In this document: positions 3,756-21,874 of the stretch, one piece after another
How positions within the stretch are numbered: the stretch's first letter is position 1
How the letters are laid out: each line of letters opens with the position of its first letter
Source of the DNA: an uncultured Tateyamaria sp.
GTDB lineage: Bacteria; Pseudomonadota; Alphaproteobacteria; Rhodobacterales; Rhodobacteraceae
DNA: 64,000 bases
NCBI RefSeq assembly: GCF_947503045.1
Contig: NZ_CANNCF010000006.1
Span: 1-64,000, forward strand
Direction: 5' to 3'
Notes under the pieces: model-generated
Seen by the model: the letters and a program-made list of their open reading frames with translations, nothing else
What the model was told of the DNA's origin: nothing
Databases searched by the model: none
Translations under genes and position numbers: made by a program

Positions 3756-4640
3756 GTGAAAGACAACACTCAAAACCACAACCGCATCGACGGTCGCCTC
3801 GTTGCCGCGCGGATCCTTGAAGACTGTCGTTCTTTTATCGAACGAAACGGCCCCGTAGGTCGCCTTGTTTCTGTGTCTGTCGGTGATGTACCAGAAATAG
3901 CAGTCTATGTACGCAATCAAGAACGTGGCGCGGCACGGGCCGACCTGCCCTTTGAGACGCAATTCTGGCCCTGCGACATCACCCAGGACGAGGCCAAGGC
4001 CCGCATTCAGGCCATGAACGATGACACACAGGTGCTGGGAATTATCTTGCAACGACCTGTGCCCGATCACATCAACCTTCGATCGCTCCAATCTGCCATT
4101 CATCCGCTCAAGGATGTTGAAGGCATGAACCCAGCCTCTATCGGCAATATTGTCTATTCGGATGTCGCGCTTGCTCCTTGCACGGCCGCGGCCAGCGTCG
4201 AATTGATCAAGGCGACAGGGCTCAATCTTGAAGGTCTCGAGGTGGTCATGATCGGGCATTCAGAGATCGTGGGCAAACCGGCAGCGATGATGCTGATGGC
4301 GAAAGGAGCGACCGTGACCGTGTGCCACCACCTGACGCGGTCGGTCGCGATGCATTCACGCCGGGCCGACGTGGTCGTGGTAGCGGTTGGTAATCCGCAT
4401 TTCCTTGGGCCGGACATGATCAAACCGGGGGCTGCGGTCATCGACATCGGCATCAACCAGATCATCGGAGCGGATGGCACCGCAAAGATCGTGGGCGACG
4501 TGGACACTGACGCGGTCGGCGATTTCGCAGGCTGGATCACGCCCGTCCCGGGTGGCGTTGGCCCGGTCACCGTCGCGATCCTGATGCGCAACGCAGTCGT
4601 GGCCTACCAGCGCCAGGTTGCCGCAGGATGGATGGACTGA
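3756..4640 (+). CDS. folD: FolD-type methylene-THF dehydrogenase (cyclohydrolase site altered)
   Basis: FolD family protein, 294 residues, normally oxidising 5,10-methylene-THF with NADP and hydrolysing 5,10-methenyl-THF to 10-formyl-THF. Visible marks: GIILQRPVP (Gln99), HPLKDVEGMNP, the NADP-site IGHSEIVGKP, and the C-terminal TPVPGGVGPVTVA. The folate-site motif Y-x3-K reads YVRNQ: Tyr51 is kept but the catalytic Lys is Gln55. The second Asp of KDVDG is Glu122. In characterised FolD enzymes that lysine is essential for cyclohydrolase but not for dehydrogenase activity, so this may be a dehydrogenase-only paralogue. GTG start at 3756; no strong ribosome binding site. Its place next to a methylamine-type regulator points to oxidation of C1 units from amine demethylation. 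Confidence 0.88.
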   Translation: MKDNTQNHNRIDGRLVAARILEDCRSFIERNGPVGRLVSVSVGDVPEIAVYVRNQERGAARADLPFETQFWPCDITQDEAKARIQAMNDDTQVLGIILQRPVPDHINLRSLQSAIHPLKDVEGMNPASIGNIVYSDVALAPCTAAASVELIKATGLNLEGLEVVMIGHSEIVGKPAAMMLMAKGATVTVCHHLTRSVAMHSRRADVVVVAVGNPHFLGPDMIKPGAAVIDIGINQIIGADGTAKIVGDVDTDAVGDFAGWITPVPGGVGPVTVAILMRNAVVAYQRQVAAGWMD

Positions 4641-4641
4641 C

Positions 4642-5670
4642 ATGGGCAAGCCGGACACCCGCTTTGAGGTCGCAGCACAGATAGACAACAACGTGCAGTC
4701 CCGCGTGATCGAAATCCATGTGACCAAGGGGTTCAGCGGGCTCGAACTGACCTCCATCACCCATGTGCTGGCCACCGCGAACAGACTGCTGCAGCGCGAC
4801 CTGTTTTCCTGGCGCTTCAGTACGAACATGCCGGGGATCGTCGCCAGCGATCAGGGCACACTCGTGCGGGCAGAGCCTGCCATTTCCGACCATCGACTTG
4901 CCGACATGATGGTCGTGGTGGGCGGGCAAGGTGCCGCAACGGGCACGTGGCTGCCGCGAGTCCGCGCGATGCAACGCAAGGCGCGCACCGTGGTGCTGCT
5001 GTCGGATTCCGCGACAGCCTATATCACGGCGACAAAGGCACCGAGCGGACGCGTGACCACACATTGGCGCGACATCACGAACCTGGTCGAGACCGGCTAT
5101 TACCCGAAGCTCACCTCTCATCTCAGCGAAAACTCGGACGGGATCATCACGGCGGCGGGCGCGGGAGCGACCCTGGAGTTGATGGTGGGGCTTGTCGCGC
5201 CTTATCTCACCAGTGTGCAGGTAGCGGAGCTGGGCAATCATCTGCTGTTGCAGACCATCCGCAAAAGTGATGCCGAACAACCCAAATGCATGGCCGACAA
5301 TGAAGGGTTGTTTGACGCCCGCCTGACAGAAGTGATCCGCCTGATGGAAGACACCGTGAACGAGCCGATGTCGATGAACGAGATTACCGCGCGTGTCGGC
5401 TATTCGACTCGGCATATGGAGCGTGTATTTCGTACGACCTTCAATGACACACCCGCCCGGTTCTACAAACGAATTCGGGTCAAACGGGCGCGCACGATGA
5501 TCGAGGAATCCCTGCTTCCGATGATCGATGTTGCAATCGCCTGCGGTTTTGGATCGTGCACGACCATGGCCAAGGCGGTAAAGGCGGAATTCGGCGTGAC
5601 ACCGTCACAGATGCGGTCGCGCAAGAGTATCCAGGTTCTGACCTATGCGGGCCGTCAGACCGCCAGATAG
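4642..5670 (+). CDS. GlxA-family AraC-type transcriptional regulator
   Basis: About 342 residues: an N-terminal DJ-1/PfpI-like domain (VGGQGAATG around the nucleophile-elbow position, without an obvious catalytic Cys) followed by a C-terminal AraC double helix-turn-helix (GYSTRHMERVFRTTFNDTPARF and VAIACGFGSCTTMAKAVKAEFGVTPSQ). Proteins of this architecture regulate carnitine, glycine-betaine, dimethylglycine and related amine pathways. The ATG at 4642 begins two bases after the folD stop; an overlapping ATG at 4618 is possible. It is probably co-transcribed with folD. It is one of two GlxA-type regulators in the island (the other at 22630). Confidence 0.88.
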   Translation: MGKPDTRFEVAAQIDNNVQSRVIEIHVTKGFSGLELTSITHVLATANRLLQRDLFSWRFSTNMPGIVASDQGTLVRAEPAISDHRLADMMVVVGGQGAATGTWLPRVRAMQRKARTVVLLSDSATAYITATKAPSGRVTTHWRDITNLVETGYYPKLTSHLSENSDGIITAAGAGATLELMVGLVAPYLTSVQVAELGNHLLLQTIRKSDAEQPKCMADNEGLFDARLTEVIRLMEDTVNEPMSMNEITARVGYSTRHMERVFRTTFNDTPARFYKRIRVKRARTMIEESLLPMIDVAIACGFGSCTTMAKAVKAEFGVTPSQMRSRKSIQVLTYAGRQTAR

Positions 5671-6494: not shown

Positions 6495-6631
6495 GGGCTC
6501 CGCACCGCAGAAAGGATTGATTTTCTCACGCGGTGGTGCCCCTTTTGTTTGCAGCGGGTATGCGTCCAGAGTATTCTCTCAGTTAAATATTTATTCCGCT
6601 AGTGCAAATTTGCGCCGCTTGGGAGGCCCAG

Positions 6632-9001
6632 ATGCTCGACACCCCCTATCCAAATGTCAGGCCCGGCCCGCCACGCCCAAGCCGGATCGTGGAGCCTGCA
6701 CAGTTTTCGATGCCGCCGGGCACCGAACGCTATGTCGTTCAAGGGGGCGGCGCGGTGCTCATTCCGGTCGAAACGGGTGATCTGGTGACGATCATTAATG
6801 ATGAGGGCGGGCAGGTCTGCGAAGTCGTCGGCAGCGACGCGCGGGGGCGCGCGGAGCAAAGCCTGTTCGATCAGGTCGCCGATGCCCCTGCGGACGGGTT
6901 GCGCGCCTTGCTTGCTGGCGACAACCATTCGCTGCGCGGGCTGCGTATGGGCCTTAATGCACGCAAGATCGATCTTGCTGCCGCACGCGCGGTGCGCCTG
7001 TTCGATGCCACAACCCGCGCTGGCACCGAACAGACAATGCGTGTCATGCGCGACGGCACACTGATCATCGCGGCCCCCGGCGGGGCCATGGATTTCGAAG
7101 TACAGGATACCCTCACGCCGTTTACCGTTATGATCAAGCGTGTCACGATCAAAAGCCACGTCAAATTCGAATTGCCTTGCCCGCTGGCCGACCCGGTTTC
7201 CGACATCCGCGTGCACACGCAGACCGCCGAAGCGTTCTTTGTTAAAGCGGGTGACTACATCCAGATTATCGACGTCGATGGCCGCCAGTGCACGGATTTC
7301 GAATGCTTTTCGGCGCGCAAACTCGATAAGGGGATCGAGCATGCGCTTGACGTGACAACCACCCGCACGCTGATGGGCCACGCCTATCCCATGCCGGGTT
7401 TGCACGCGAAATACTACGATCAGGAAATGCTGCCATTGGTCGAGGTGGTGCAGGATACCTGCGGTCGCCATGACGCCTTCGCGCTGGCCTGCTCGGCCAA
7501 GTACTACGACGACATCGGCTATCCCGGTCACGTCAATTGTTCCGAAAATTTCAACGCGGCCCTGTCCAAGTTCAACGTCACGGGCCGCCCCGGCTGGATG
7601 GCGATCAACTTCTTCTTCAACACCTATCTCGACGAACATGGGGTGATGTATTCGGACGAACCATGGTCGCGCCCCGGCGACTACGTGCTGTTGCGCGCGC
7701 TGACGGACATCGTCTGCGTCTCCTCCGCGTGCCCTGACGACACAACAGCAGCAAACGGCTGGAACCCCACCGACATCCACGTGCGCACCTATAGTGGGCG
7801 CGAGACCTTTCAACGCAGTGTCGCCTACCGGCCCACCCCTGATGCGGACCCCAAAATGACCAAACAAACCGCCTTTCACGATCAATTCGCCAAGCACACC
7901 CGCAACTTTGTCGAATACAATGGCTACTGGCTGGCCAACTGCTTTGCCGAGGCTGGCCCGATCGAGGAATACTGGGCTTGCCGCCAAAAGGCGGTGATCA
8001 TGGACCTGTCGCCCCTGCGCAAGTTCGAGATCACTGGGCCCGATGCCGAGGCGCTGTGCCAATACGTCTTCACCCGCAACATGAAAACATTGGCCGTGGG
8101 CGGCGTTGTCTACACCGCGATGTGTTATGAGCACGGCGGCATGATCGACGACGGCACCGTCTTCCGGCTGGGCAAGGACAACTTCCGCTGGATCGGCGGC
8201 AATGATTATGGCGGCGACTGGCTGCGTGAACAGGCCGAAAAACTCGGGCTGAAAGTGCTTGTTCGCTCCTCCACGGACCAACTTCACAATGTCGCTGTCC
8301 AAGGCCCCGAAAGCCGCGACCTGCTGCGTAAGATCGTCTGGACCGCGCCGCACAATCCCGAGTTCGACCAGCTTGGCTGGTTCCGTTTCACCCCCGCACG
8401 GCTAAACAATGAATCCGGCACCCCTTTCGTAATCTCCCGCACGGGTTACACGGGCGAGCTGGGCTACGAGGTGATGTGCCACCCTAAGGATGCGTCCGAG
8501 ATTTTTGGCGCGATCTGGGGTGCAGGGCAGGACCACGGCCTGCGCCCCATGGGACTCGAAGCGCTTGACATGGTACGGATCGAAGCGGGGCTGATCTTTG
8601 CCGGCTACGATTTCTCCGACCAGACCGACCCCTTCGAGGCAGGCATCGGCTTTACCGTACCGCTCAAATCCAAACCCGACGACTTCATCGGACGCGACGC
8701 CTTGATCCGGCGCAAGGAGCATCCCAGCCGTAAACTCGTCGGCCTCGACATCGACAGCAATGTGCAGGTCGATCACGGCGACTGCATCCATATCGGGCGC
8801 GCACAGATTGGCGAAATCACGTCGTCGATGCGCTCACCGCTCTTGGACAAGAACATCGCCCTGGCCCGGATCGACGTGGCCCATGCCGACATCGGCACTC
8901 CGGTTGAGGTCGGAAAACTCGATGGCCACCAAAAGCGGCTCCCGGCTGAAATCGTCCCCTTTGCCCATTACGATCCGAAAAAGGAACGTCCCCGCTCTTG
9001 A
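6632..9001 (+). CDS. tdm: Trimethylamine-N-oxide demethylase (DUF1989-GcvT fusion)
   Basis: Cytoplasmic enzyme of 789 residues that cleaves TMAO to dimethylamine plus formaldehyde, the C1 unit being captured on tetrahydrofolate. The DUF1989 domain spans about residues 190-400 and the GcvT (aminomethyltransferase) domain about 425-785, with SRTGYTGELGYEV and RIEAGL as GcvT marks. Asp222, Cys287, Cys303 and Cys367 have the same spacing as the zinc ligands I recall for the Methylocella silvestris enzyme. Start: ATG 6632 with GGGAGG six bases upstream, preferred over a GTG at 6602. The first 190 residues repeat DUF1989-like features weakly. It heads an operon with two small exported proteins and lies next to tmm. 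Confidence 0.92.
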   Translation: MLDTPYPNVRPGPPRPSRIVEPAQFSMPPGTERYVVQGGGAVLIPVETGDLVTIINDEGGQVCEVVGSDARGRAEQSLFDQVADAPADGLRALLAGDNHSLRGLRMGLNARKIDLAAARAVRLFDATTRAGTEQTMRVMRDGTLIIAAPGGAMDFEVQDTLTPFTVMIKRVTIKSHVKFELPCPLADPVSDIRVHTQTAEAFFVKAGDYIQIIDVDGRQCTDFECFSARKLDKGIEHALDVTTTRTLMGHAYPMPGLHAKYYDQEMLPLVEVVQDTCGRHDAFALACSAKYYDDIGYPGHVNCSENFNAALSKFNVTGRPGWMAINFFFNTYLDEHGVMYSDEPWSRPGDYVLLRALTDIVCVSSACPDDTTAANGWNPTDIHVRTYSGRETFQRSVAYRPTPDADPKMTKQTAFHDQFAKHTRNFVEYNGYWLANCFAEAGPIEEYWACRQKAVIMDLSPLRKFEITGPDAEALCQYVFTRNMKTLAVGGVVYTAMCYEHGGMIDDGTVFRLGKDNFRWIGGNDYGGDWLREQAEKLGLKVLVRSSTDQLHNVAVQGPESRDLLRKIVWTAPHNPEFDQLGWFRFTPARLNNESGTPFVISRTGYTGELGYEVMCHPKDASEIFGAIWGAGQDHGLRPMGLEALDMVRIEAGLIFAGYDFSDQTDPFEAGIGFTVPLKSKPDDFIGRDALIRRKEHPSRKLVGLDIDSNVQVDHGDCIHIGRAQIGEITSSMRSPLLDKNIALARIDVAHADIGTPVEVGKLDGHQKRLPAEIVPFAHYDPKKERPRS

Positions 9002-9375: not shown

Positions 9376-9782
9376 TCCGCTTTGCAGCAGCCGTGGCGCT
9401 CAGCGCTGTCGCGGCCCATGCGGATACGTATTGCGCCGATCTGACGGCACTTTCCAACGGCACTATCACCGAAATCGCTTTGCCTTCGGGCAAGGCTGGT
9501 ATCTGCGCTATATCGCAGGACCTGTCAGGCGCGCGCGCAGTCAATTGTCGTTGGCCTTTTGACTACCGCGTGCAGGCCGCGACCGATGCGTTCACCCGGT
9601 TGCTCGACGCCACGGCTCAGTGCCTGAACACCGAGGGCGTCAGTGATCAGGGGGTGAACCACCCCGACAGCTATGATTTGCGAACATTCGACACGGACAC
9701 GGGGCAGGTTAGCGTGTCGATCAAGGACAAGGGCGCGCTGCAGCAGACTTTCATCTTTCTGCGCGTCGCCCCGCCCGCCTAA
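9372..9782 (+). CDS. Small exported cysteine-containing protein of unknown function
   Basis: 136 residues. It begins in an ATGA overlap with the previous gene and has a signal peptide ([17 protein letters not shown]). The mature part has four cysteines (CADL, GICAIS, VNCRW, QCLNT), enough for two disulphides in the periplasm. No family recognised. It is the third gene of the tdm operon; its TAA stop at 9780-9782 overlaps the stop of tmm on the other strand, so the two operons meet tail to tail with no spacer. Confidence 0.75.
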
Positions 9783-11113
9783 TTCTGCAAGTACACGTCA
9801 ATACTGTCATCCAGCGCGTCGACCCAAGGTGTATGATGCTTGGGCGCCATTGTCCCAGTCATCACCGATTTGTACCCATTGTCGCGGAAGGTCATGATCC
9901 CCTGCTTCTTGTGGCCCTTCCACTCTTTGAACGCCTTGCAGGCCCCTTCAACATCGAATGAGGGGTAATCAGTTTCGGCGATCAATTCCTTGATGTAATC
10001 CCCCTGGTACCAGATCGCATCGTAGTCATCAGCCCCAGCATCCTCGCGCGCCACACGGTCAACCACATCGGCCTCCATCTCGGCCTTCGACGGCGTGTCG
10101 ATCTTGCCCATGATGGCGTCCCGCACCCACCAGGCTTGGGCGTCAAACATGTTGAAGGTGAACCACTGGTCCTGCATTCCAAGATAGAAAAGCGCGGGGT
10201 TTTCGACCCAAGCGACGCCTTTATACAGGTCCGCCGTCGCCAACCGGTTGGCCGTTTTCAGGCGCAGATCGTCGGCCATGAAGGGGAAGTGATGCTGGTA
10301 CCCGGTACACAGAATGACAGCATCCACATCGCGGCTGGTGCCATCCTTGAAATGCGCAATCTTGCCGTCCACGTGGGTAAGCAACGGCACTTCAGCCCAA
10401 TTGTCGGGCCAGTCATATCCCATGGCCGCCGTGCGGTGAGAAACGGTGATAGATTTCGCCCCATATTTCCAGCATTGCGAGCCGATATCCTCGGCGGAAT
10501 AGCTGGTGCCGACGATCAGGATATCCTGATCCTTGAATTCAAGCGCATCGCGGAAATCATGGGCGTGTAGCACACGGCCCTTGAAGGTTTCAAAACCCGG
10601 AAACTCCGGCACGTTCGGCGTTGAAAAATGCCCCGAAGCGCAAACGACATGATCAAATTTTTCGGTGTATTCGCGGTCATTCGGCAGGTCCTTGACCGTG
10701 ACGCTGAAGGTGCCGTTTTCAAACTCGACGCGTCGCACCGCCGTCTCGAACCGGATCCAGTCCCGCACGCCTGCCTTTTCAACCCGACCCTGGATATAGT
10801 CGAACAGCACCGCGCGAGGCGGATATGATGCGATCTGCTTGCCGAAATGCTCCTCAAAGGAATAGTCCGCGAATTCCAACCCCTCTTTGGGGCCGTTCGA
10901 CCAAAGATAGCGGTACATCGACCCGTGCACCGGTTCGCCATACTGATCCACACCAGTGCGCCAGGTATAGTTCCATAGACCACCCCAATTGGCCTGTTTT
11001 TCAAAGCAGACGACCTCGGGGATATCTTCCCCGTTTTGCTTGGCGGACTGAAACGCGCGCAGCTGCGCCAGCCCCGACGGTCCGGCCCCGATGATGGCGA
11101 TACGTTTGGGCAT
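9779..11113 (-). CDS. tmm: Trimethylamine monooxygenase
   Basis: Flavin-containing monooxygenase of 444 residues that oxidises TMA to TMAO with NADPH and O2. It has the FAD motif GAGPSG at the N-terminus, the FMO signature [11 protein letters not shown], the NADPH-site GTSYSAED and the CTGY motif ([10 protein letters not shown]). Length and sequence style match bacterial Tmm (about 445-455 residues). The start at ATG 11113 has AGGAGAG just upstream; an earlier in-frame start at 11164 is not supported. It makes the substrate of Tdm, encoded convergently next door. A motif resembling the island's A-tract element (AACTAATTTGCACAAG, about 11178) lies upstream. Confidence 0.95.
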
Positions 11114-11269
11114 TGTGCGACTCTCCTGGCAATATTCAGTTTGTACCAATTCGACCGCCATCATCCCTGCAAGTCAACTAATTTGCACAAGAGTGAAAAT
11201 GCAGACGTGACTTTCCTTGTGCCATGGTGTTGATGTCGGGCACTTCATCACGGCAAAAATGGGCGCACC

Positions 11270-11700: not shown

Positions 11701-13035
11701 TCAGATATCGAGGGTATTGTCCTTTTCCCACTGCGAGAAATGCGCCGTGAAATCGTTCCACTCCTGCGTCTTCATCTTGACGTAAGAGGCCGAGAACTCT
11801 TCGCCCATAGCGGCTTTTAGGCCCTTGTCCTTGTCGTATTCGCGCAAGGCATCCAGCATATTCAGCGGCAGCTTGGGTGCGCCACGCACCTTGTGGCCTT
11901 CGGCATACATATCAATGTCGTGGCGCTTGCCGGGATCGGCCTCAGTGCGGATACCGTCAAGGCCGGCCGCAATGATGACAGCTTGCAGCAGATAGGGGTT
12001 CGTCGCCCCATCCGGCAGGCGCAACTCAAAGCGACCTGGGCCAGGGACGCGCACCATATGGGTGCGGTTGTTGCCCGTCCACGTCACCGTGTTAGGCGCC
12101 CATGTGGCCCCTGACATCGTGCGTGGTGCGTTGATGCGTTTGTAGCTGTTCACCGTCGGGTTGGTGATCGCAGCCAGCGCGCTCGCGTGCTTCATGATCC
12201 CGCCAAGGAAATGGCGACCTTTTTCGGACAACCCGAGTTCAGCCGTTTGCGAGCTGTCATTCGGTTCCATCGCGAAGACGTTGGTCTTGGCGTCTGCACC
12301 CGGTGCGTCCCAGACCGAGATGTGGGCGTGGCATCCGTTGCCCGTCAGCCCTTCGACCGGTTTGGGCATGAAGGTTGCGCGGAACCCGTGCTTTTCGGCC
12401 ACACTTTTGGTCATGAACTTGAAGAAGGAATGCTTGTCGGCGGTGCGCAGCGCATCATCAAACTCCCAGTTCATCTCGAACTGGCCGTTCGCGTCCTCAT
12501 GGTCGTTCTGGTAAGGTCCCCAGCCCAGATCAAGCATGTAGTCGCAGATCTCGCGCACCACGTCATAGCGGCGCATCACCGCCTGCTGGTCATAGCAGGG
12601 CTTGGCGGCGGTGTCGTATTCGTCACTGATCTGGTTGCCGTCCGGGGTCATCAGGAAATACTCCGCCTCGATCCCGGTCTTGACGTGCAGCCCTTCGGCG
12701 GCGGCCTCATTAATCAGGCGGCGCAGCACGTTGCGGGGGGCCTGGGCGACGTCCTCGCCTTCCATGACGCAGTTGCCCGCAACCCACGCCACTTCGGGTT
12801 TCCAAGGCAGCTGGATCACCGAGGACGGGTCGGGCACTGCCAACATGTCCGGGTGGGCAGGTGTCATATCGAGCCAAGTCGCAAAACCGGCAAAACCCGC
12901 GCCATCTTCCTGCATATCGGCGATGGCCTGTGCGGGCACCAGTTTGGCCCGTTGGCCGCCAAAAAGGTCGGTGAAGGAAATCATGAAATATTTTACGCCA
13001 TTGTCGGCGGCGAACTGTGCAAGATCAGTGGTCAT
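11701..13035 (-). CDS. gmaS: Gamma-glutamylmethylamide synthetase
   Basis: Glutamine-synthetase-like ligase, 444 residues, joining methylamine to glutamate with ATP to give gamma-glutamylmethylamide. Glutamine synthetase landmarks are present: the metal-site TGIEAEYF, NDHEDANGQFEMNW, the ATP-site GNGCHAHIS, NPTVNSYKRINAP and the substrate-site RVPGPGRFELRLPDGATNPYL (shown in part). Classical GlnA differs in length and in several of these loops. Position directly downstream of mgsABC supports GMA synthetase rather than GlnA. ATG 13035 with an AGGGACAG element upstream. A stem-loop separates it from mgsC (13066-13093). Confidence 0.93.
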   Translation of the reverse strand: MTTDLAQFAADNGVKYFMISFTDLFGGQRAKLVPAQAIADMQEDGAGFAGFATWLDMTPAHPDMLAVPDPSSVIQLPWKPEVAWVAGNCVMEGEDVAQAPRNVLRRLINEAAAEGLHVKTGIEAEYFLMTPDGNQISDEYDTAAKPCYDQQAVMRRYDVVREICDYMLDLGWGPYQNDHEDANGQFEMNWEFDDALRTADKHSFFKFMTKSVAEKHGFRATFMPKPVEGLTGNGCHAHISVWDAPGADAKTNVFAMEPNDSSQTAELGLSEKGRHFLGGIMKHASALAAITNPTVNSYKRINAPRTMSGATWAPNTVTWTGNNRTHMVRVPGPGRFELRLPDGATNPYLLQAVIIAAGLDGIRTEADPGKRHDIDMYAEGHKVRGAPKLPLNMLDALREYDKDKGLKAAMGEEFSASYVKMKTQEWNDFTAHFSQWEKDNTLDI

Positions 13036-13065
13036 CTATCTGTCCCTGTCGGTCTTTATGTGGTG

Positions 13066-13093
13066 AGGGCGCGTGCCGTGATGGCCGCGCCCT
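13066..13093 (-). promoter_or_regulatory. Intercistronic stem-loop between mgsC and gmaS
   Basis: AGGGCGCG and CGCGCCCT form an 8-base-pair GC-rich stem around a 12-base loop, in the 70-base gap between mgsC and gmaS. No U-run follows on the minus strand, so it is more likely an mRNA-processing or stability element than a strong terminator. Confidence 0.45.
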
Positions 13094-13105
13094 TCGTTGT
13101 GGTGA

Positions 13106-14449
13106 TCAGTAAGAGGTGCCCGGTTTGCCGGGATACCAGTCGGTGCCCGCCAGCGGGATTTTGGCCATCGCCGCGGCCTCCATCGTCAGCGCGCAAAGGT
13201 CCTCAGGCTCAAGATTGTGAAGGTGGTTCTTGCCGCAGGCCCGCGCGATGGTTTGCGCCTCAAGCGTCATCACCTTGAGATAGTTGTTGAGCCGGCGCCC
13301 CCCTTCGATAGGGTCAAAACGCTTCATCAATTCGGGATCTTGCGTCGTGATCCCGGCGGGGTCCTGCCCTTCGTGCCAGTCATCATAGGCACCGGCGGTC
13401 GTCCCGAGAGCGTTGTATTCGGCCTCCCATTTGGGGTCGTTGTCGCCCAGCGCAATAAGCGCGGCGGTACCGATGGCGACAGCATCAGCCCCCAGCGCCA
13501 TAGCCTTGGCCACATCCGCGCCCGTCCGTATCCCACCTGAAACGATCAGCTGCACCTCGCGATGCATGTCGAGGTCTTGCAGCGCACGCACAGCCTCGCG
13601 GATACAGGCCAAGATCGGTTGGCCGACGTGTTCGATGAACACATCCTGCGTGGCCGCCGTGCCGCCTTGCATCCCGTCAAGCACCACGACATCCGCGCCC
13701 GCCTTTAAAGCAAGTGTCGTGTCAAAGTAGGGACGCGCGCCACCGACTTTGATATAGATCGGCTTTTCCCAATTGGTGATCTCGCGCAGCTCGAGGATTT
13801 TGATTTCCAGATCATCCGGCCCGGTCCAGTCGGGGTGACGGCAGGCAGAACGCTGATCGATCCCCTTGGGCAGATTGCGCATTTCGGCCACGCGGTCGCT
13901 GATCTTTTGGCCCAGAAGCATTCCGCCACCGCCGGGCTTGGCCCCCTGCCCCACCACGATCTCAATGGCGTCAGCGCGGCGCAGATCGTCCGGGTTCATC
14001 CCGTAACGCGAAGGCAAATACTGATAGACCAGCTTGTTGGAATGGCCTCGCTCTTCCTCGGTCATGCCGCCGTCGCCCGTCGTGGTCGACGTGCCCGCCA
14101 TGGTCGCGCCACGGCCCAATGCCTCCTTGGCAGCGCCCGAAAGCGCACCAAAGGACATGCCTGCAATCGTGACCGGGATGTCCAGTTGGATCGGGTTCTT
14201 GGCAAACCGAGTGCCCAACGTGACCGAGGTTTCGCATTTCTCGCGATATCCTTCGAGCGGATAGCGCGATATGGATGCGCCCAAAAACAGTAGATCATCG
14301 AAATGGGGCAGTTTGCGTTTTGCCCCGCCGCCGCGAATGTCATAGATGCCGGTCGCCGCCGCGCGCCGGATTTCAGCATTCACGGAGTTTGAAAAAGTGG
14401 CCGACTGGATCGGCATCGTGCGCGGGGCGCCGTTTTGGTCGTCTTTCAT
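13106..14449 (-). CDS. mgsC: N-methylglutamate synthase subunit C (FMN-binding, GltB-like)
   Basis: 447 residues, homologous to the FMN/synthase domain of the glutamate synthase large subunit. Marks: TIAGMSFGALSGAAKEALGR, GQGAKPGGGGMLLGQK, DGMQGGTAAT and IVSGGIRTGADVAKAMALGAD. With MgsA and MgsB it converts gamma-glutamylmethylamide or methylamine plus glutamate to N-methylglutamate. The region that in GltB carries the three cysteines of the 3Fe-4S cluster reads TAGAYDDWHEGQDPAGITTQ (about residues 351-370) and has none, so the protein is predicted to bind FMN only. Starts ten bases after the mgsB stop. Confidence 0.92.
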   Translation of the reverse strand: MKDDQNGAPRTMPIQSATFSNSVNAEIRRAAATGIYDIRGGGAKRKLPHFDDLLFLGASISRYPLEGYREKCETSVTLGTRFAKNPIQLDIPVTIAGMSFGALSGAAKEALGRGATMAGTSTTTGDGGMTEEERGHSNKLVYQYLPSRYGMNPDDLRRADAIEIVVGQGAKPGGGGMLLGQKISDRVAEMRNLPKGIDQRSACRHPDWTGPDDLEIKILELREITNWEKPIYIKVGGARPYFDTTLALKAGADVVVLDGMQGGTAATQDVFIEHVGQPILACIREAVRALQDLDMHREVQLIVSGGIRTGADVAKAMALGADAVAIGTAALIALGDNDPKWEAEYNALGTTAGAYDDWHEGQDPAGITTQDPELMKRFDPIEGGRRLNNYLKVMTLEAQTIARACGKNHLHNLEPEDLCALTMEAAAMAKIPLAGTDWYPGKPGTSY

Positions 14450-14458
14450 GGTCTACCC

Positions 14459-15136
14459 TTAATACGCGTTATCGATTTTGAAGGTATAAAGCTCGCGCGC
14501 TGATCCATAGCGTTTGAATTCGGACGCCTTGGCATCGCATTCACCACGCTTCAGCAATTCCTCAAGGATGGCAATATGCTCAGGCCGCATCTCCTTTTCG
14601 ATGCAATCCGCTCCAAGGGATTTGACCGACCCACGCACGAACAGGCGTGCCTCGTATAGTGAATCGCCCAACGCTTCGCCGGCATCGCCGCAAACGACAA
14701 GATTGCCAGACTGCGCCATGAAGGCCGACATGTGCCCGATATTGCCGTGCACGATGATGTCGATCCCCTTCATCGAAATCCCGCAGCGAGAGGACGCGTT
14801 GCCCTTAATCACTAACGTGCCGCCATGGCCGGTGGCACCGGCATATTGCGAAGCGTCCCCTTCAACGATAACCATGCCGGACATCATGTTTTCCGCCGTG
14901 CCCGGCCCGACGGAGCCATGCACATGCACCTTGGCCTGCTTGTTCATGCCGGCGCAATAATAGCCGGTGGACCCTTTGATATCCACCTCGATCGGTGCAT
15001 CCAGACCCACCGCGATGGCGTGGCTGCCTTTCGGGTTCACGATTTCCCAATGGGTCTGATTTGTATTTGCTGCCTGTGCATGAAGCGTGGAGTTTAGCGC
15101 TCGCAGGCCCTCCGCCTCTAAGTCAAATGTCTGCAT
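14459..15136 (-). CDS. mgsB: N-methylglutamate synthase subunit B (GXGXG domain)
   Basis: 225 residues, matching the C-terminal GXGXG beta-helix domain of glutamate synthase as a separate protein. The repeated G-x-x-G-x-x-x-G turns are visible (KGSTGYYCAGMNKQAKVHVH, GMVIVEGDASQYAGATGHGG, GNIGHMSAFMAQSGNLVVCG). It is a structural part of the MgsABC complex. The ATG immediately follows the mgsA stop, so the two are translationally linked. Confidence 0.92.
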   Translation of the reverse strand: MQTFDLEAEGLRALNSTLHAQAANTNQTHWEIVNPKGSHAIAVGLDAPIEVDIKGSTGYYCAGMNKQAKVHVHGSVGPGTAENMMSGMVIVEGDASQYAGATGHGGTLVIKGNASSRCGISMKGIDIIVHGNIGHMSAFMAQSGNLVVCGDAGEALGDSLYEARLFVRGSVKSLGADCIEKEMRPEHIAILEELLKRGECDAKASEFKRYGSARELYTFKIDNAY

Positions 15137-16066
15137 TTAAGCCGCTTTCTCTTGCGCGGTGGGGGCCGCGTTGTGCGACCAAAAATAAACGGTGGCAGGC
15201 TCGGGTTCCCAGACGCGGGCCTGATCGATCCCCGGCAGGTTCACCAGCGCGCGGTATTCAGACCCGAAAGCCACATATTGATCGGTTTCAGCCATCACAG
15301 CAGGTTTGCACGCAATCGGATCACGCACGACGCCAAACCCGTCCTTCGTGCCCACTACAAAGGTGAAGAACCCGTCGAGGTCATCAAGACTGGAGGTCAG
15401 CGCCTCGCCCAGAGTCGAACCTTTTTGCATTTTCCACGTGAGGTAGGCCGCCCCCACTTCGGTGTCGTTTTCCGTCTCGATATGAACGCCAAGACGACGC
15501 AGCTTGCGGCGCAGCGAATTGTGGTTGGACAGCGATCCATTGTGGACAAGGCACTGGTCGACGCCGGTGTTGAACGGGTGCGCTCCCATGGTTGTGACAG
15601 CAGATTCGGTCGCCATGCGGGTGTGCCCGATGCCGTGGGTCCCGGACATGTGCCGGATGTCGAAGCGTTCTGCCACTTCTTTGGGCAAACCGACTTCCTT
15701 GTAGATTTCGAGGGTGGACCCGTGGCTCATCACCCGCACATCGGGGCGGATTTCGGTCAGGATTTCGCGTGCCGCGGCGACCTGATCGGCCTTAATCGAC
15801 AGCACCGCGTGGGTGTCCTTAACCCCCATCAACACCTTGCCCTTGATGCGCTTGCGCAGGTCATCATCCAGCTTGTCAAAATCTCTTTCCGGCGCGCCCG
15901 ATTGCACGGTCAGTTTGGCGTTACCATTTGTTTCAGAACCATAAATTGCGATGCCCGCACTGTCAGGGCCGCGATCCGTCATGGTAATCAGCATGTCCGT
16001 CAACATGTCGCCAAGCTGTGGCTCCAGCGAGGTGTCTTTTAGAAAAAGTCCGACGATCCCGCACAT
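15137..16066 (-). CDS. mgsA: N-methylglutamate synthase subunit A (class II amidotransferase-like)
   Basis: 309 residues, a class II glutamine-amidotransferase (Ntn hydrolase) domain. Starting at ATG 16066 puts Cys directly after the initiator Met (MCGIVGLFLKD), giving the free N-terminal Cys nucleophile of this family; an upstream in-frame ATG at 16117 would bury it. GGGAGGG lies about nine bases upstream. Further marks are GIGHTRMATES, HNGSLSNHNSLRRKL and ENDTEVGAAYL. It would release methylamine or ammonia from the gamma-amide for transfer to the MgsC active site. First gene of mgsABC-gmaS, divergent from amt. Confidence 0.92.
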   Translation of the reverse strand: MCGIVGLFLKDTSLEPQLGDMLTDMLITMTDRGPDSAGIAIYGSETNGNAKLTVQSGAPERDFDKLDDDLRKRIKGKVLMGVKDTHAVLSIKADQVAAAREILTEIRPDVRVMSHGSTLEIYKEVGLPKEVAERFDIRHMSGTHGIGHTRMATESAVTTMGAHPFNTGVDQCLVHNGSLSNHNSLRRKLRRLGVHIETENDTEVGAAYLTWKMQKGSTLGEALTSSLDDLDGFFTFVVGTKDGFGVVRDPIACKPAVMAETDQYVAFGSEYRALVNLPGIDQARVWEPEPATVYFWSHNAAPTAQEKAA

Positions 16067-16160
16067 GGCGAAGGCCCTCCCAAAAAGTGATCTGTCGTTC
16101 GACTCGAACGCTAACATCGTTACATCACATGCTCAACCGTTGGGAAACTAATTTTCACTT

Positions 16161-18023: not shown

Positions 18024-19175
18024 ATGGCCATTCTATGGAGAAACTCCGCCCTTGCGGGGCGTCACGCCGAAATCGGTGGAGAGCTTGAAGACTGGAATGG
18101 CATGGGGACGGCGTGGTTCTATGACGACACACCCGAACGCGCCAAGGCCGATTACGAGGCGATCCGCACCAAGGCGGGCCTCATGGATGTATCGGGCCTC
18201 AAGAAAGTGCACGTTGTTGGCGAGGACGCCGCCTATGTGATCGACCGGGTGACCACCCGCAATGTCGAAAAGATCGCGCCGGGTCGAGCCGTCTATGCCT
18301 GCATGCTCGATGATCGTGGCCTGTTCGTGGATGACTGCGTGATCTACCACATCGCGGTCAACTCGTGGCTGGTCGTGCATGGCACCGGCATCGGGATGGA
18401 GCAGCTGACAACCGTGGCCGCCGCCAAGAATTGTTCCGTGATCATGGATGACGATCTGCACGACATGTCGCTGCAGGGGCCGAAGGCAGTGGACATTTTG
18501 GCGAAAGACATCCCAGGTATCCGTGATCTGGCCTATTTCGGGATCATACAGACCCGCCTCTATGGCCGCGACGTCATGATCTCGCGCACGGGCTACACAG
18601 GCGAGCGGGGTTACGAGATTTTCTGCCGCGCCAAGGATGCAGTGCACATCTGGGACAACGTGCTCAAGGCAGGCGGCGACGATGTGCGCCCGACCCAGTT
18701 CAGCACCCTCGATATGCTGCGGATTGAATCCTATCTGCTGTTCTATCCCGGCGACAATTCCGAGACTTTCCCATTCGAAGACGGCTCGCCCGCAGGCGAC
18801 AGCCTTTGGGAACTGGGCCTCGATTTCACCGTATCGCCCGGCAAGACCGGCTTTATCGGATCCGAAAACCACTATGCCATGGAAGGCAAGGAGCGGTTCA
18901 AGATCTACGGTGTGAAACTGTCAGGCGACGCCATGGACCGGATGGAGATGTTTGCCCGCGTGCATCACGAAGGCAAAGACGTCGGCGTCATCACCTATGG
19001 CCTGTCGTCGGACCTGAACGGCTATTCTGTCGCCATTTCGCGGCTTGACCCGTCGGTCGCGTCGCCCGGCACCAAGCTGACCGTTGTGCAGCCCGATGGC
19101 ACCGAACTTGCTGCAACGGCCGAGGAAATGCCATTCTACGACAAGGACAAGTCCGTGCGCACTGCCAAGGGCTGA
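18024..19175 (+). CDS. dmmD: Dimethylamine monooxygenase cluster GcvT-like protein
   Basis: 383 residues of the GcvT aminomethyltransferase family, which bind tetrahydrofolate. Marks: RAKADYEAIRTKAGLMDVSG, SLQGPKAVDIL, ISRTGYTGERGYEIFC and TLDMLRIESYLLFYPGD. In the dimethylamine demethylase systems (DmmDABC in roseobacters; the delta subunit of the haem-dependent oxidative N-demethylase in Pseudomonas) this protein takes the formaldehyde equivalent onto THF. ATG 18024 with AGGGAAAAA upstream. First gene of dmmDABC; a hairpin separates it from dmmA. Confidence 0.88.
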   Translation: MAILWRNSALAGRHAEIGGELEDWNGMGTAWFYDDTPERAKADYEAIRTKAGLMDVSGLKKVHVVGEDAAYVIDRVTTRNVEKIAPGRAVYACMLDDRGLFVDDCVIYHIAVNSWLVVHGTGIGMEQLTTVAAAKNCSVIMDDDLHDMSLQGPKAVDILAKDIPGIRDLAYFGIIQTRLYGRDVMISRTGYTGERGYEIFCRAKDAVHIWDNVLKAGGDDVRPTQFSTLDMLRIESYLLFYPGDNSETFPFEDGSPAGDSLWELGLDFTVSPGKTGFIGSENHYAMEGKERFKIYGVKLSGDAMDRMEMFARVHHEGKDVGVITYGLSSDLNGYSVAISRLDPSVASPGTKLTVVQPDGTELAATAEEMPFYDKDKSVRTAKG

Positions 19176-19183
19176 TATCTTCC

Positions 19184-19215
19184 AAGGGCGCGGGGACCGA
19201 TCCACGCGCCCTTTT
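19184..19215 (+). terminator. Hairpin between dmmD and dmmA (attenuator-like)
   Basis: AAGGGCGCG pairs with CGCGCCCTT over nine base pairs around a 12-base loop, followed by TTC. It resembles a leaky terminator that could lower dmmABC expression relative to dmmD, or an mRNA end protecting dmmD transcript. Confidence 0.5.
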
Positions 19216-19233
19216 CACGTGACGAGGACAGCT

Positions 19234-19830
19234 ATGTCGAAGTTTGAATTCCCCCCGTCGATCAAAAGCCGCCCGGTCTATGGCACGCTTGAGGCGCGGC
19301 CCGGAAAAGGGCACCTGATGATCGCCGATGGCGAGGGGGCCGAGGCGATCCTTGGCATCGCAACGCCTGACCTGATGGCGAAAACCCACATCATCTATAT
19401 CCCGCGCGGCGCTGCGTTTGCGGACCAGTTGCGCGCCCTGGGCCCGGCGCAGTTTTACGAGGGGCCGACCTATGCCGCGTCCGTGTCGCGCATCCGCCGC
19501 GTGCTGCAGGACGCCCACATGGGGTTGCAGGTGTACCTGACCGGCACCGAAGGTTTGATGGGCCAGGCCCAGAACGAGGCGATGATGGCGGGCATCCCCC
19601 ACACGGCAATTCAGACCGAACATCGCGGATCGGTGGCCCGCCGCATGCAATGCGTGCATTGCAAAGGCATCACCGATGATGTGGAAACCGACCCGTTTCA
19701 ATGCAGCCATTGCGGGCTGAATCTGTTTGTGCGCGATCACTATTCGCGCCGTCTGGCCGCCTATCAAGGCGTGTGCATCGACGCAGAGGATCCGGGCAAT
19801 GTGCCCGCACCCAAGGGGATTTACGAATGA
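19234..19830 (+). CDS. dmmA: Dimethylamine monooxygenase subunit DmmA
   Basis: 198 residues from ATG 19234, which has a GAGGA site upstream. The C-terminal third has two Cys pairs, CVHC and CSHC, spaced like a zinc-ribbon or rubredoxin-type metal site. The N-terminal part (SIKSRPVYGTLEARPGKGHL, HIIYIPRGAAFADQLRALG) is a separate alpha/beta region with no clear motif. Its place in the dmmDABC order and the ATGA overlap with dmmB support its being a subunit of the dimethylamine N-demethylase. Possibly it carries electrons from DmmB to DmmC. Confidence 0.82.
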   Translation: MSKFEFPPSIKSRPVYGTLEARPGKGHLMIADGEGAEAILGIATPDLMAKTHIIYIPRGAAFADQLRALGPAQFYEGPTYAASVSRIRRVLQDAHMGLQVYLTGTEGLMGQAQNEAMMAGIPHTAIQTEHRGSVARRMQCVHCKGITDDVETDPFQCSHCGLNLFVRDHYSRRLAAYQGVCIDAEDPGNVPAPKGIYE

Positions 19831-20810
19831 GCGCAGCCCCCCAAAAAGCCAAACCCGGTGCCGAAAAGATCGACGTGGTCGTGGCGGCGGTCGAGCCCTT
19901 GAACGACCTTGTCACCCGGTTCGAATTCAAGCGCCGCGACGGCGCACTGTTCCCGCCCTTTTCCGGCGGCGCGCATACGGTCGTGACTATGCAGGACGGG
20001 GACCGGGCCCGGCTCAACCCCTATTCGCTGATGTCCGACCCGGCGGACCTGAGCACCTATGCCATTTCCGTGCGCCGCGATGACGAGGGGCGTGGCGGAT
20101 CGCTGTTCATGCACCGCAATGTGACGGTGGGCGACGAGATGACGATCACATATCCGGTGAACCTGTTCTCGCTTGACCTGCGCGCGCGCAAACATTTGTT
20201 CTTTGCAGGCGGTATCGGGATCACCCCGTTCATGTCGATGATTGCCCAGCTTGAACGGATGGGTGGCGCGTGGGAGCTGCACTATGCCTGCCGCACCGAG
20301 GCGCTTGGGACCTATGTGGATCAGCTGACCTACAAGCATCCCAACAAGGTGCATGTGTATTATGACGATCAGAACCAAGCGATTGATCTGGAACATCTGC
20401 TGGACGGGCAACCGCTTGGCACCCATGCCTATGTCTGCGGACCCAAAGGGATGATCAACTGGGTGCATGCCACGGCGTCAGCCGCCGGTTGGCCGGATGC
20501 CAACGTGCATTCCGAAGAGTTTCTGGCCCCCGAGCCCGGCGTGCCCTTCGAGGTGCGCCTGTGCCAGTCCGACAAGACGATCACCGTGGGCGAACACGAA
20601 AGCTTGCTGGAAGCGATTGAGCGCGCCGGTGTAGAGGCCCCGTTCCTGTGCCGTGGTGGGTCCTGCGGACAATGCGAAACGGACGTGGCCCGTGCTGAGG
20701 GCGAATTCATCCACCGCGATCACTGGCTGGAAGACGAAGACCATGCCTCGGGCAAGAAAATCATGCCCTGCGTCAGCCGCTTTATCGGGACATTGGAGCT
20801 TGAACGATGA
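19827..20810 (+). CDS. dmmB: Dimethylamine monooxygenase reductase subunit DmmB
   Basis: 327-residue flavin reductase with the phthalate-dioxygenase-reductase layout: flavin-binding barrel with RLNPYSLMS (about residues 65-75), a nucleotide-binding domain (FFAGGIGITPFMSM), and a C-terminal plant-type 2Fe-2S ferredoxin domain with ligands in CRGGSCGQCE and PCVSR. It passes electrons from NAD(P)H to the haem subunit. The ATG overlaps the dmmA stop (ATGA), and its own stop overlaps the dmmC start. Confidence 0.9.
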   Translation: MSAAPQKAKPGAEKIDVVVAAVEPLNDLVTRFEFKRRDGALFPPFSGGAHTVVTMQDGDRARLNPYSLMSDPADLSTYAISVRRDDEGRGGSLFMHRNVTVGDEMTITYPVNLFSLDLRARKHLFFAGGIGITPFMSMIAQLERMGGAWELHYACRTEALGTYVDQLTYKHPNKVHVYYDDQNQAIDLEHLLDGQPLGTHAYVCGPKGMINWVHATASAAGWPDANVHSEEFLAPEPGVPFEVRLCQSDKTITVGEHESLLEAIERAGVEAPFLCRGGSCGQCETDVARAEGEFIHRDHWLEDEDHASGKKIMPCVSRFIGTLELER

Positions 20811-21874
20811 CCATTCAATTCAACGACGAGACCTTTCGCGACGACTATTCGTTCCACAACTCCGATTGGGCGATCAAACGCTTCCCGTTCCCCTTCCACG
20901 AAGACAGCTACATGTATGCAGTCAACATGGAACAGCATCGGGGTGGGCCCGAGGGATCGGTTTATGAAAAGCGGTTCGATGTGGACGAACACTACGTGTC
21001 CGAGATGCGCGACCGGGCGATGGTGCTTGCGGACGATCCGCTGCGCTGCCAGTCCTTGCCGCATATGACACTGGCAGGCTGGGACCTGCTGGAACTGATC
21101 ATGGTCTCCAAATCCGAGGACTACCCCGACCTGTTCGAACTGCACCGCGATGGCAACACGTGGCGATGGATCAACAAACCGCTGGGCATCGACGACACGT
21201 TCACCTTTCTGGACGACACCACCCTGCCCTATGGACCGATGGAATACATCACACGCCAGACCCAAGGCGATTTCTGTGTTCTTGATCAACGGGATAACAA
21301 CCTGTGGATGGACGCAGGTATGGTGACGACGCAAGCCGACTGGAGCCTTGATTTCGACATCGGCATGAACTTCTTTGAATGGCACGCGCCGGTGCCACTG
21401 GCCCATGAAAAGGGCATCTTTGTCCGCGCCCTGAAATTCCTGCTCAACATCCAGCAAGGGGCCCCTGCACGCCGGTTGAACTGGACCATGACGGTCAATC
21501 CGCTGCTCGATACCAGCCCGGAAAACTACCACAAATGGGGCATCCAGAAGACGACGCTGACGCCCGAAAACATCGGTGCCAAACAGCATCTGCGTGTCGA
21601 GTTGCAGACCTTTTTCCGCCTGCCCCGCTCAAACGGACTGGTGTTTCCGATCCGGTGTTACCTGTGCAGCTTTCAGGACCTGATGACGATGCCCAAATGG
21701 GGACGTCGCCTGCACCGCGTGGTGCGCGACCTGCCGGTTGAGTTGGCCACCTACAAGGGGTTCATCGACAACAGACCGATGATGCTCGACTACCTGTCGC
21801 AATTCGACGATGGCCTGCCCACGTCACCCGGCGTCTGGCCGGATTTCGAAACCGAGCCGCCGCTGGCCAAATAG
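20807..21874 (+). CDS. dmmC: Dimethylamine monooxygenase haem subunit DmmC (DUF3445)
   Basis: 355 residues, belonging to the DUF3445 / haem-dependent oxidative N-demethylase alpha-subunit family, in which a PAS-like fold binds haem and carries out oxidative demethylation of dimethylamine to methylamine. Recognisable segments: FPFPFHEDSYMYAVNMEQHR, NWTMTVNPLLDTSPENYHKW and RVELQTFFRLPRSNGLVFPI. It is the last gene of dmmDABC, begins in an ATGA overlap, and ends one base before the stop of the convergent XRE-cupin regulator. Confidence 0.88.
   Translation: MTIQFNDETFRDDYSFHNSDWAIKRFPFPFHEDSYMYAVNMEQHRGGPEGSVYEKRFDVDEHYVSEMRDRAMVLADDPLRCQSLPHMTLAGWDLLELIMVSKSEDYPDLFELHRDGNTWRWINKPLGIDDTFTFLDDTTLPYGPMEYITRQTQGDFCVLDQRDNNLWMDAGMVTTQADWSLDFDIGMNFFEWHAPVPLAHEKGIFVRALKFLLNIQQGAPARRLNWTMTVNPLLDTSPENYHKWGIQKTTLTPENIGAKQHLRVELQTFFRLPRSNGLVFPIRCYLCSFQDLMTMPKWGRRLHRVVRDLPVELATYKGFIDNRPMMLDYLSQFDDGLPTSPGVWPDFETEPPLAK

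What the first reader, a model, noticed from the sequence alone, without database searches (positions are those of the whole stretch)
3756..4640. Island FolD has lost the cyclohydrolase lysine
The Y-x3-K motif reads YVRNQ (Gln55 for Lys) and KDVDG reads KDVEG (Glu122 for Asp), while the NADP site and Gln99 are intact. In well-studied FolD proteins the lysine is required for cyclohydrolase but not dehydrogenase activity. A dehydrogenase-only FolD would make methenyl-THF and NADPH from demethylation carbon, and NADPH is what Tmm needs. A housekeeping FolD elsewhere, or a separate cyclohydrolase, would then finish the job.
Basis: partly seen in the sequence, partly recalled or inferred. Interest (0 to 1): 0.72.

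Follow-up and report, generated by a model that had tools for sequence, protein, structure and literature searches.

The report
Conserved FolD paralogue lacking cyclohydrolase lysine
The gene belongs to a well-conserved side branch of the folate enzyme FolD, found mainly in Alphaproteobacteria, that has swapped the lysine needed for one of FolD's two reactions, so it probably does only the oxidation step when cells burn methyl groups.

Summary
The two substitutions are real: window 3756-4640 encodes a 294-aa FolD-like protein with Gln55 for the YxxxK lysine (E. coli K54) and Glu122 for D121; Gln99 is kept. This is no recent loss in one island. It is the signature of a paralogous subfamily: Gln55 in 80 of 80 and Glu122 in 79 of 80 named relatives kept by the search, one clade with SH-aLRT 100. 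The subfamily also has Arg100 for a substrate-contact Leu, and His168/His192 at two of three NADP 2'-phosphate positions, so 'NADP site intact' does not hold. The genome has a second, ordinary FolD beside fhs and no FchA match. In 66 further genomes a canonical FolD, or its tail at a contig edge, was always found. Contexts: TMAO-demethylase islands, fhs-folD(Q/E)-folD(K/D) operons, formate dehydrogenase operons; 39 of 80 loci show none of the C1 genes tested. Best reading: a dehydrogenase-only methylene-THF dehydrogenase for C1 oxidation. E. coli K54N keeps about 19% dehydrogenase and no detectable cyclohydrolase (PMC5688156). The NADPH-for-Tmm idea is weakened. Nothing was assayed.

The parts
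3756..4640 (+). folD-like gene of the Q/E subfamily, 294 aa
   Evidence: PF00763 and PF02882 over cut-off; AlphaFold2 model pLDDT 88.1 with FolD/MTHFD2 as best structural matches
3918..3920 (+). codon 55, Gln where canonical FolD has the cyclohydrolase Lys (E. coli K54)
4050..4055 (+). codons 99-100, conserved Gln (E. coli Q98) followed by Arg where most canonical FolDs compared have Leu
4119..4121 (+). codon 122, Glu where canonical FolD has the pterin-binding Asp (E. coli D121)
4257..4259 (+). codon 168, His at the position of human Arg173 (NADP 2'-phosphate); E. coli has Ala167 here
4329..4331 (+). codon 192, His at the position of human Ser197 / MTHFD2 Arg233 (NADP/NAD preference); E. coli has Arg191
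4642..5670 (+). AraC-type regulator (GbdR-like, far below that model's cut-off), ATG one base after the folD stop, probably one transcript
6602..9001 (+). tdm, trimethylamine N-oxide demethylase with a GcvT-like half; likely source of methylene-THF (inferred)
   Evidence: NF053776 over cut-off
9779..11164 (-). tmm, trimethylamine monooxygenase
   Evidence: NF058570 over cut-off
11701..16117 (-). gmaS-like gene (type III glutamine synthetase model over cut-off) and three genes of the N-methylglutamate pathway (pathway names recalled)
18024..21874 (+). dimethylamine monooxygenase gene group (a GcvT-like protein, a DmmA-like protein, a reductase-like protein and one more frame)
   Evidence: grouping and names partly by recall

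Best explanation
The gene encodes a dedicated 5,10-methylene-THF dehydrogenase, a FolD paralogue without cyclohydrolase activity. It oxidises the methylene-THF made by THF-dependent demethylases (here Tdm) to methenyl-THF and reduces NAD(P)+. The separate canonical FolD (and slow spontaneous hydrolysis) opens methenyl-THF to 10-formyl-THF; Fhs running backwards releases formate and ATP; formate dehydrogenase finishes. The paralogue adds dehydrogenase capacity for C1 burning, and its changed cofactor pocket may favour NAD+, which would pull the flux to oxidation. Shown: the substitutions, their fixation in one clade, purifying selection, the FolD fold (model), a canonical FolD in every genome checked, and linkage to C1-oxidation genes in part of the loci. 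Inferred: the activities, cofactor, direction and division of labour.
For: Q55 80/80, E122 79/80, R100 80/80, H168 80/80, H192 79 of 80 with one X. The seven positions checked (Y51, Q55, Q99, E122, H168, H191, H192) are the same in 11 more genomes, 10 of them from other families. One clade of 61 sampled rows, SH-aLRT 100. Catalytic Tyr51, Gln99, K119, D120, G123 and the glycines of the Rossmann motif and the PVPGGVGP loop are kept, so it is not a dead enzyme by sequence. dN/dS about 0.02-0.12 in four pairs, dS saturated, a fifth pair gave no dS. E. coli K54N: about 19% dehydrogenase, no detectable cyclohydrolase (PMC5688156, passages). Residues near the Lys changed with it (E. coli V38 to Ser, L96 to Ile). 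A K/D FolD in every genome checked. Order fhs - folD(Q/E) - folD(K/D) at 16 of 17 loci fetched from the 55-59% group. Co-occurrence with Tdm over cut-off: 22 of 38 genomes with, 46 of 257 without (Fisher p 5.8e-7, kinship not corrected).
Against: No assay. D121E and L99R touch the substrate site, so weak activity or another substrate is possible. 39 of 80 named loci have none of the C1 or methylamine genes tested within the DNA held, though many of those loci are cut short. Of 20 neighbour proteins scanned from 16 mostly such loci only one (formate dehydrogenase alpha, L064) is plainly a C1 enzyme. Constant presence of a canonical FolD is weak evidence, because FolD is near-universal anyway. 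K54N also cut the dehydrogenase to about a fifth.
Confidence: 0.7

Rival explanations
1. Rewired bifunctional enzyme: Gln55, Arg100 and Glu122 together rebuild the site so that both dehydrogenase and cyclohydrolase run, with the positive charge moved from Lys55 to Arg100.
For: Gln55 and Arg100 occur together in 80 of 80 and Glu122 in 79 of these, as expected of a compensated site.
Against: Lys-less E. coli FolD has no detectable cyclohydrolase; Arg is a poor general base (general knowledge); not seen without a canonical FolD in the genomes checked.
Confidence: 0.14
2. Changed substrate: the altered pterin-contact residues mean it oxidises a related compound (another reduced pterin carrier or folate form), not ordinary methylene-THF.
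For: Positions matching human Lys56, Leu101 and Asp125, three of seven key substrate residues in PMC3368264 (passages), are changed and fixed.
Against: Neighbours, where C1-linked, are THF enzymes (Tdm, Fhs, canonical FolD). PMC4744692 (passages) states that marine bacteria such as Roseobacter and SAR11 lack the genes for C1 oxidation by tetrahydromethanopterin.
Confidence: 0.1
3. Non-catalytic partner that forms a mixed dimer with, or regulates, the canonical FolD.
For: Side-by-side genes in many loci.
Against: Catalytic Tyr, Gln and glycine loops are invariant. In the window's genome the two genes lie on different contigs, and in 11 of 11 genomes they lie on different contigs or at least 53 kb apart.
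Confidence: 0.06

Closest known systems
Bifunctional FolD / MTHFD1 DC domain (E. coli FolD, human MTHFD1)
   Same: Both Pfam domains, whole fold (TM-score by query length 0.82-0.89 over the 50 chains listed), Tyr51, Gln99, KD-x-G, PVPGGVGP
   Different: No YxxxK lysine, Glu for the pterin Asp, Arg for Leu after Gln99, two of three 2'-phosphate residues changed against human; 35% identical to the genome's own canonical FolD
Monofunctional NAD-dependent methylene-THF dehydrogenase MTD1 of yeast (PDB 1edz)
   Same: Would work alike: dehydrogenase without cyclohydrolase (MTD1's activity known here only from titles in the reference list of PMC11064299, and from recall)
   Different: Only a weak, partial sequence match (E 2.3e-6, query residues 81-188), so an independent origin is likely
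Mitochondrial MTHFD2 (NAD-preferring)
   Same: The key cofactor position (Ser197 in MTHFD1, Arg233 in MTHFD2) is also changed; an oxidative C1 role is the proposal here
   Different: MTHFD2 keeps the catalytic Lys (Lys88) and is bifunctional (PMC9173628, passages)
MtdA + Fch of methylotrophs
   Same: Splits dehydrogenase and cyclohydrolase between proteins
   Different: Separate families (recalled); no FchA (PF04961) match in this genome; MtdA was not searched

Membership tests
Bifunctional FolD | Two domains PF00763 and PF02882 | tested here: met
   both over cut-off
Bifunctional FolD | FolD fold | tested here: met
   AlphaFold2 model pLDDT 88.1, pTM 0.86; best PDB matches FolD and MTHFD2
Bifunctional FolD | Catalytic Lys of YxxxK | tested here: not met
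   Gln55; 80/80 in the subfamily
Bifunctional FolD | Catalytic Gln (E. coli Q98) | tested here: met
   Gln99, 80/80
Bifunctional FolD | Pterin-binding Asp (E. coli D121) | tested here: not met
   Glu122, 79/80
Bifunctional FolD | NADP 2'-phosphate residues as in human (Arg173, His196, Ser197); not strictly defining, E. coli has Ala167 and Arg191 at the first and last | tested here: not met
   His168, His191, His192; only the middle one kept
Bifunctional FolD | Both activities in the purified protein | not testable with these tools
   needs an assay
Monofunctional methylene-THF dehydrogenase (function class) | Dehydrogenase without cyclohydrolase | not testable with these tools
   predicted only
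Monofunctional methylene-THF dehydrogenase MTD1 (sequence family) | Homology over the whole length, nearer than to FolD | tested here: not met
   1edz weakest of 27 PDB hits, partial
NAD-specific MTHFD | NAD+ preference | tested here: inconclusive
   2'-phosphate residues changed, but His can also bind phosphate

The most novel reading that the evidence does not exclude
An old FolD duplication, centred on Alphaproteobacteria, gave an NAD+-linked, dehydrogenase-only methylene-THF dehydrogenase for C1 burning. It works as a split pair with the canonical FolD (operon fhs-folD2-folD1 in part of the genomes), and its pterin and cofactor sites were both rebuilt. Database records label it bifunctional.
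Probability: 0.4. Interest if true: 0.7.

Novelty: new variant of a known kind. Interest (0 to 1): 0.57.

Why it matters
The THF route by which marine bacteria burn methyl groups from choline and methylated amines is drawn with FolD as one bifunctional enzyme (for example PMC4744692, Figure 1 legend). A widespread second FolD with a rebuilt active site would mean that dehydrogenase and cyclohydrolase are separate in this flux, possibly with a different cofactor, which changes the energy and redox budget. The survey PMC11064299 (passages) reports no ancient FolD duplications in stem groups of major prokaryotic phyla; an older duplication within or near one class would be a case to set beside that. 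Labels are unsafe: two of the three plasmid records found call it bifunctional, the third has no annotation. It is directly testable by enzyme assay.

Tried and rejected
Recent decay or pseudogene: rejected (conserved signature, dN/dS about 0.02-0.12, no stop). Only FolD in the genome: rejected for the window's genome. Four genomes first looked like counter-examples (G002, G153, G190, G305), but each has the tail of a canonical FolD at the contig edge just upstream of this gene. FchA or PurU as partner: no PF04961 match; TIGR00655 only below cut-off (75 and 29.6 bits). Copies in viral contigs: none found in the one scan; the phages collection was not searched. Plasmid copies: 3 records at E up to 1e-60. 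RNA regulation: no Rfam match at gathering score in 1-24000. Promoter and terminator scan: no more than in shuffles. The paper on human K56/Q100/D125 mutants is not held, and searches for K56Q and Q100K gave nothing relevant. I recall that a human K56Q/Q100K double mutant kept much of its dehydrogenase activity; this comes from no call and is not used as evidence.

Full report
Observation. Window 3756-4640 (+) reads as a 294-aa FolD homologue with YVRNQ and KDVEG; both Pfam FolD domains pass their cut-offs. An alignment with E. coli K-12 FolD (fetched) puts Q55 on K54, Q99 on Q98, E122 on D121, H168 on A167 and H192 on R191. An AlphaFold2 model (31-row alignment, pLDDT 88.1, pTM 0.86) matches solved FolD and MTHFD structures best; TM-score by query length is 0.82-0.89 over the 50 chains listed.

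Not a loss in one island. In 295 genomes drawn from the window's family, the listed matches fall into three bands: 68-100% identity, 55-59%, and 43% or less (weaker matches are cut from the listing and at most 8 candidates a genome were scored). The first two bands cover 38 genomes. Of the 30 loci given with sequence (window's own included), two are fragments of one gene (L019) or cut; the 28 other relatives read Q, Q, E, H, H at 55, 99, 122, 168, 192, against K, Q, D, R, S in the 20 canonical FolDs found beside them. There Q55 is 80/80, Q99 80/80, R100 80/80, E122 79/80 (Ala in L107), H168 80/80, H192 79 with one X; neighbouring canonical FolDs have K 15/15, D 15/15, R168 16/16, S192 16/16, one N-terminal gap set aside. 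In a draw of 398 genomes of the phylum 15 have it (E up to 1e-70), all within the window's class; the 11 loci not seen before keep the signature at the seven positions checked. A tree of 95 rows puts the 61 Gln rows on one side of one branch, SH-aLRT 100 (quick search, no bootstrap; the tool warns of long branches, and E. coli is the only row from outside the sampled set). dN/dS against four relatives is about 0.02-0.12, dS being saturated; a fifth pair gave no dS.

Anatomy. Kept in all 176 rows compared, E. coli among them: Y51, Q99, K119, D120, G123, G167, S169, G173, H191 and the glycines of the PVPGGVGP loop. Changed at 95% or more of 109 rows, against 90% or more of 67 canonical rows: Q55 and E122; residues near the Lys (E. 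coli V38 to Ser, L96 to Ile); H168 and H192; E. coli P143 and G145 both to Ala; and others, 21 columns in all. Arg follows Gln99. PMC3368264 (passages) lists Tyr52, Lys56, Gln100, Leu101, Asp125, Gly273 and Gly276 as key substrate residues of the human enzyme, and Arg173, His196, Ser197 as 2'-phosphate ligands. So three of the seven substrate residues and two of the three phosphate ligands differ. The E. coli enzyme also differs from human at these two phosphate positions (Ala167, Arg191), so this pocket varies among FolDs. PMC9173628 (abstract and other passages) names Ser197 (MTHFD1) versus Arg233 (MTHFD2) as a determinant of NADP/NAD preference; this is His192 here. The cofactor therefore cannot be called NADP+ from sequence.

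What the lysine does. PMC5688156 (passages): E. coli FolD K54N retains about 19% dehydrogenase and has no detectable cyclohydrolase; Q98H has about 8% dehydrogenase and an estimated 1% cyclohydrolase; methenyl-THF hydrolysis can occur spontaneously. This supports a dehydrogenase-only prediction, though the extra changes here were not in that mutant.

Other FolDs. The window's genome has one more FolD, C1:916265-917164, with K and D, 35% identical to this one, about 0.6 kb after fhs. No FchA was found, and no PurU over cut-off. Of 57 handles searched (55 distinct genomes, two pairs showing identical places), 53 handles (51 genomes) have a canonical match (G321's is cut by contig ends, G332's contains one TGA); the other four show only the canonical FolD's C-terminal tail at the contig edge directly upstream of this gene. 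In 11 further genomes 11 of 11 have one. The 61 canonical FolD loci taken from these read Lys and Asp in 61 of 61. Fhs (PF01268) is in 54 of 61 such genomes; the misses are G153, G190, G304, G305, G327, G331 and G526. Since canonical FolD is near-universal, this rules out sole use in these genomes but proves little more.

Context. In the window the gene sits beside an AraC-type regulator (ATG one base after its stop) and in an island with tdm, tmm, gmaS, N-methylglutamate and dimethylamine genes. Among the 80 named loci, 41 have at least one of Tdm, Tmm, GmaS, MgsC, canonical FolD, Fhs or formate dehydrogenase genes at 45% identity or more, and 39 have none in the DNA held, much of it short. 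Counts: Tdm 24, canonical FolD 16, GmaS 14, Tmm 13, Fhs 11, FdhA 7. FdhA (TIGR01591 over cut-off in L064) ends within 300 bases of the gene in 5 loci. Twenty neighbour proteins from 16 loci without TMAO-demethylase neighbours were scanned: one was that FdhA, one (L098) an amine-oxidase-like flavoprotein, and the rest were unrelated to C1 metabolism or matched nothing. In the 55-59% group, 16 of 17 fetched loci (one genome twice) show the order fhs - this FolD - canonical FolD; L163 shows only this FolD. Across 295 family genomes, Tdm over cut-off occurs in 22 of 38 with this FolD and 46 of 257 without (Fisher p 5.8e-7; no correction for kinship, three candidates a genome scored). The link is stronger in the 68-100% band (12 of 15) than in the 55-59% band (10 of 23). 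In a genus of large genomes (8 found), the four stretches fetched show none of the C1 queries, and scanned neighbours include hisS and glcF. So the link is to C1 oxidation in part of the genomes, not to Tmm in particular.

Mechanism. Most likely: methylene-THF (from Tdm and similar) to methenyl-THF by this enzyme; to 10-formyl-THF by canonical FolD; to formate and ATP by Fhs; to CO2 by formate dehydrogenase. PMC4744692 (passages, summary included) reports that oxidation of choline methyl groups in Ruegeria pomeroyi requires Fhs, and its Fig. S4 legend lists folD, tmm, tdm and formate dehydrogenase genes around the two fhs copies. Whether R. pomeroyi has this FolD was not tested. PMC4543880 (passages) describes folD-purU pairs in Paracoccus aminophilus; those FolDs were not compared here. 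NADH as product is a guess (about even). NADPH for Tmm stays possible but has no support here.

Novelty. PMC11064299 (passages) reports no ancient FolD duplications in stem groups of major prokaryotic phyla, and a single copy in most prokaryotes. Searches for K56Q with cyclohydrolase, E. coli FolD residue numbers, monofunctional dehydrogenase with lysine, FolD copies in Alphaproteobacteria (14 listed; passages of three seen) and six phrases for FolD without cyclohydrolase (zero papers) showed me no account of this subfamily in the held library; subscription journals are mostly missing. Monofunctional dehydrogenases are known (yeast MTD1; bacterial ones from recall), so this is a new variant of a known kind.

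Noticed in passing
L147-L162 (not L163): Order fhs - Q/E FolD - canonical FolD in 16 of 17 fetched loci; one genome (G275) carries it at two places in one contig (L158, L159).
   Followed up: partly
G000:C3:373914-376163: A second Tdm-like protein (1039 bits, below the 1100 cut-off) in the window's own genome; similar below-cut-off proteins occur in other family genomes. It may have another substrate.
   Followed up: no
L057, L064, L072, L089, L094, L164: Formate dehydrogenase alpha gene just upstream of the Q/E FolD, suggesting co-expression of the two oxidation steps.
   Followed up: partly
L019 (G190:C82): The Q/E FolD is split between two frames in this genome, a frameshift or an assembly error.
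   Followed up: no
L115, record NZ_VCCH02000035: Record labelled Mycobacterium sp. KBS0706 carries a Q/E FolD, and its genome shows the same pair of FolD hits (42% and 39%) as that of Inquilinus limosus; the organism label looks doubtful. Not tested.
   Followed up: no
L196, L197: Canonical FolDs of these two genomes (those of L113 and L115) have Glu instead of the catalytic Gln98 while keeping Lys and Asp.
   Followed up: no
window 4642-5670 and 22630-23628: Two AraC-type regulators with weak DJ-1/PfpI matches in one methylated-amine island; the first (GbdR-like below cut-off) starts one base after folD.
   Followed up: no
L107: The only one of 80 with Ala instead of Glu at position 122 (Paracoccus binzhouensis).
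   Followed up: no
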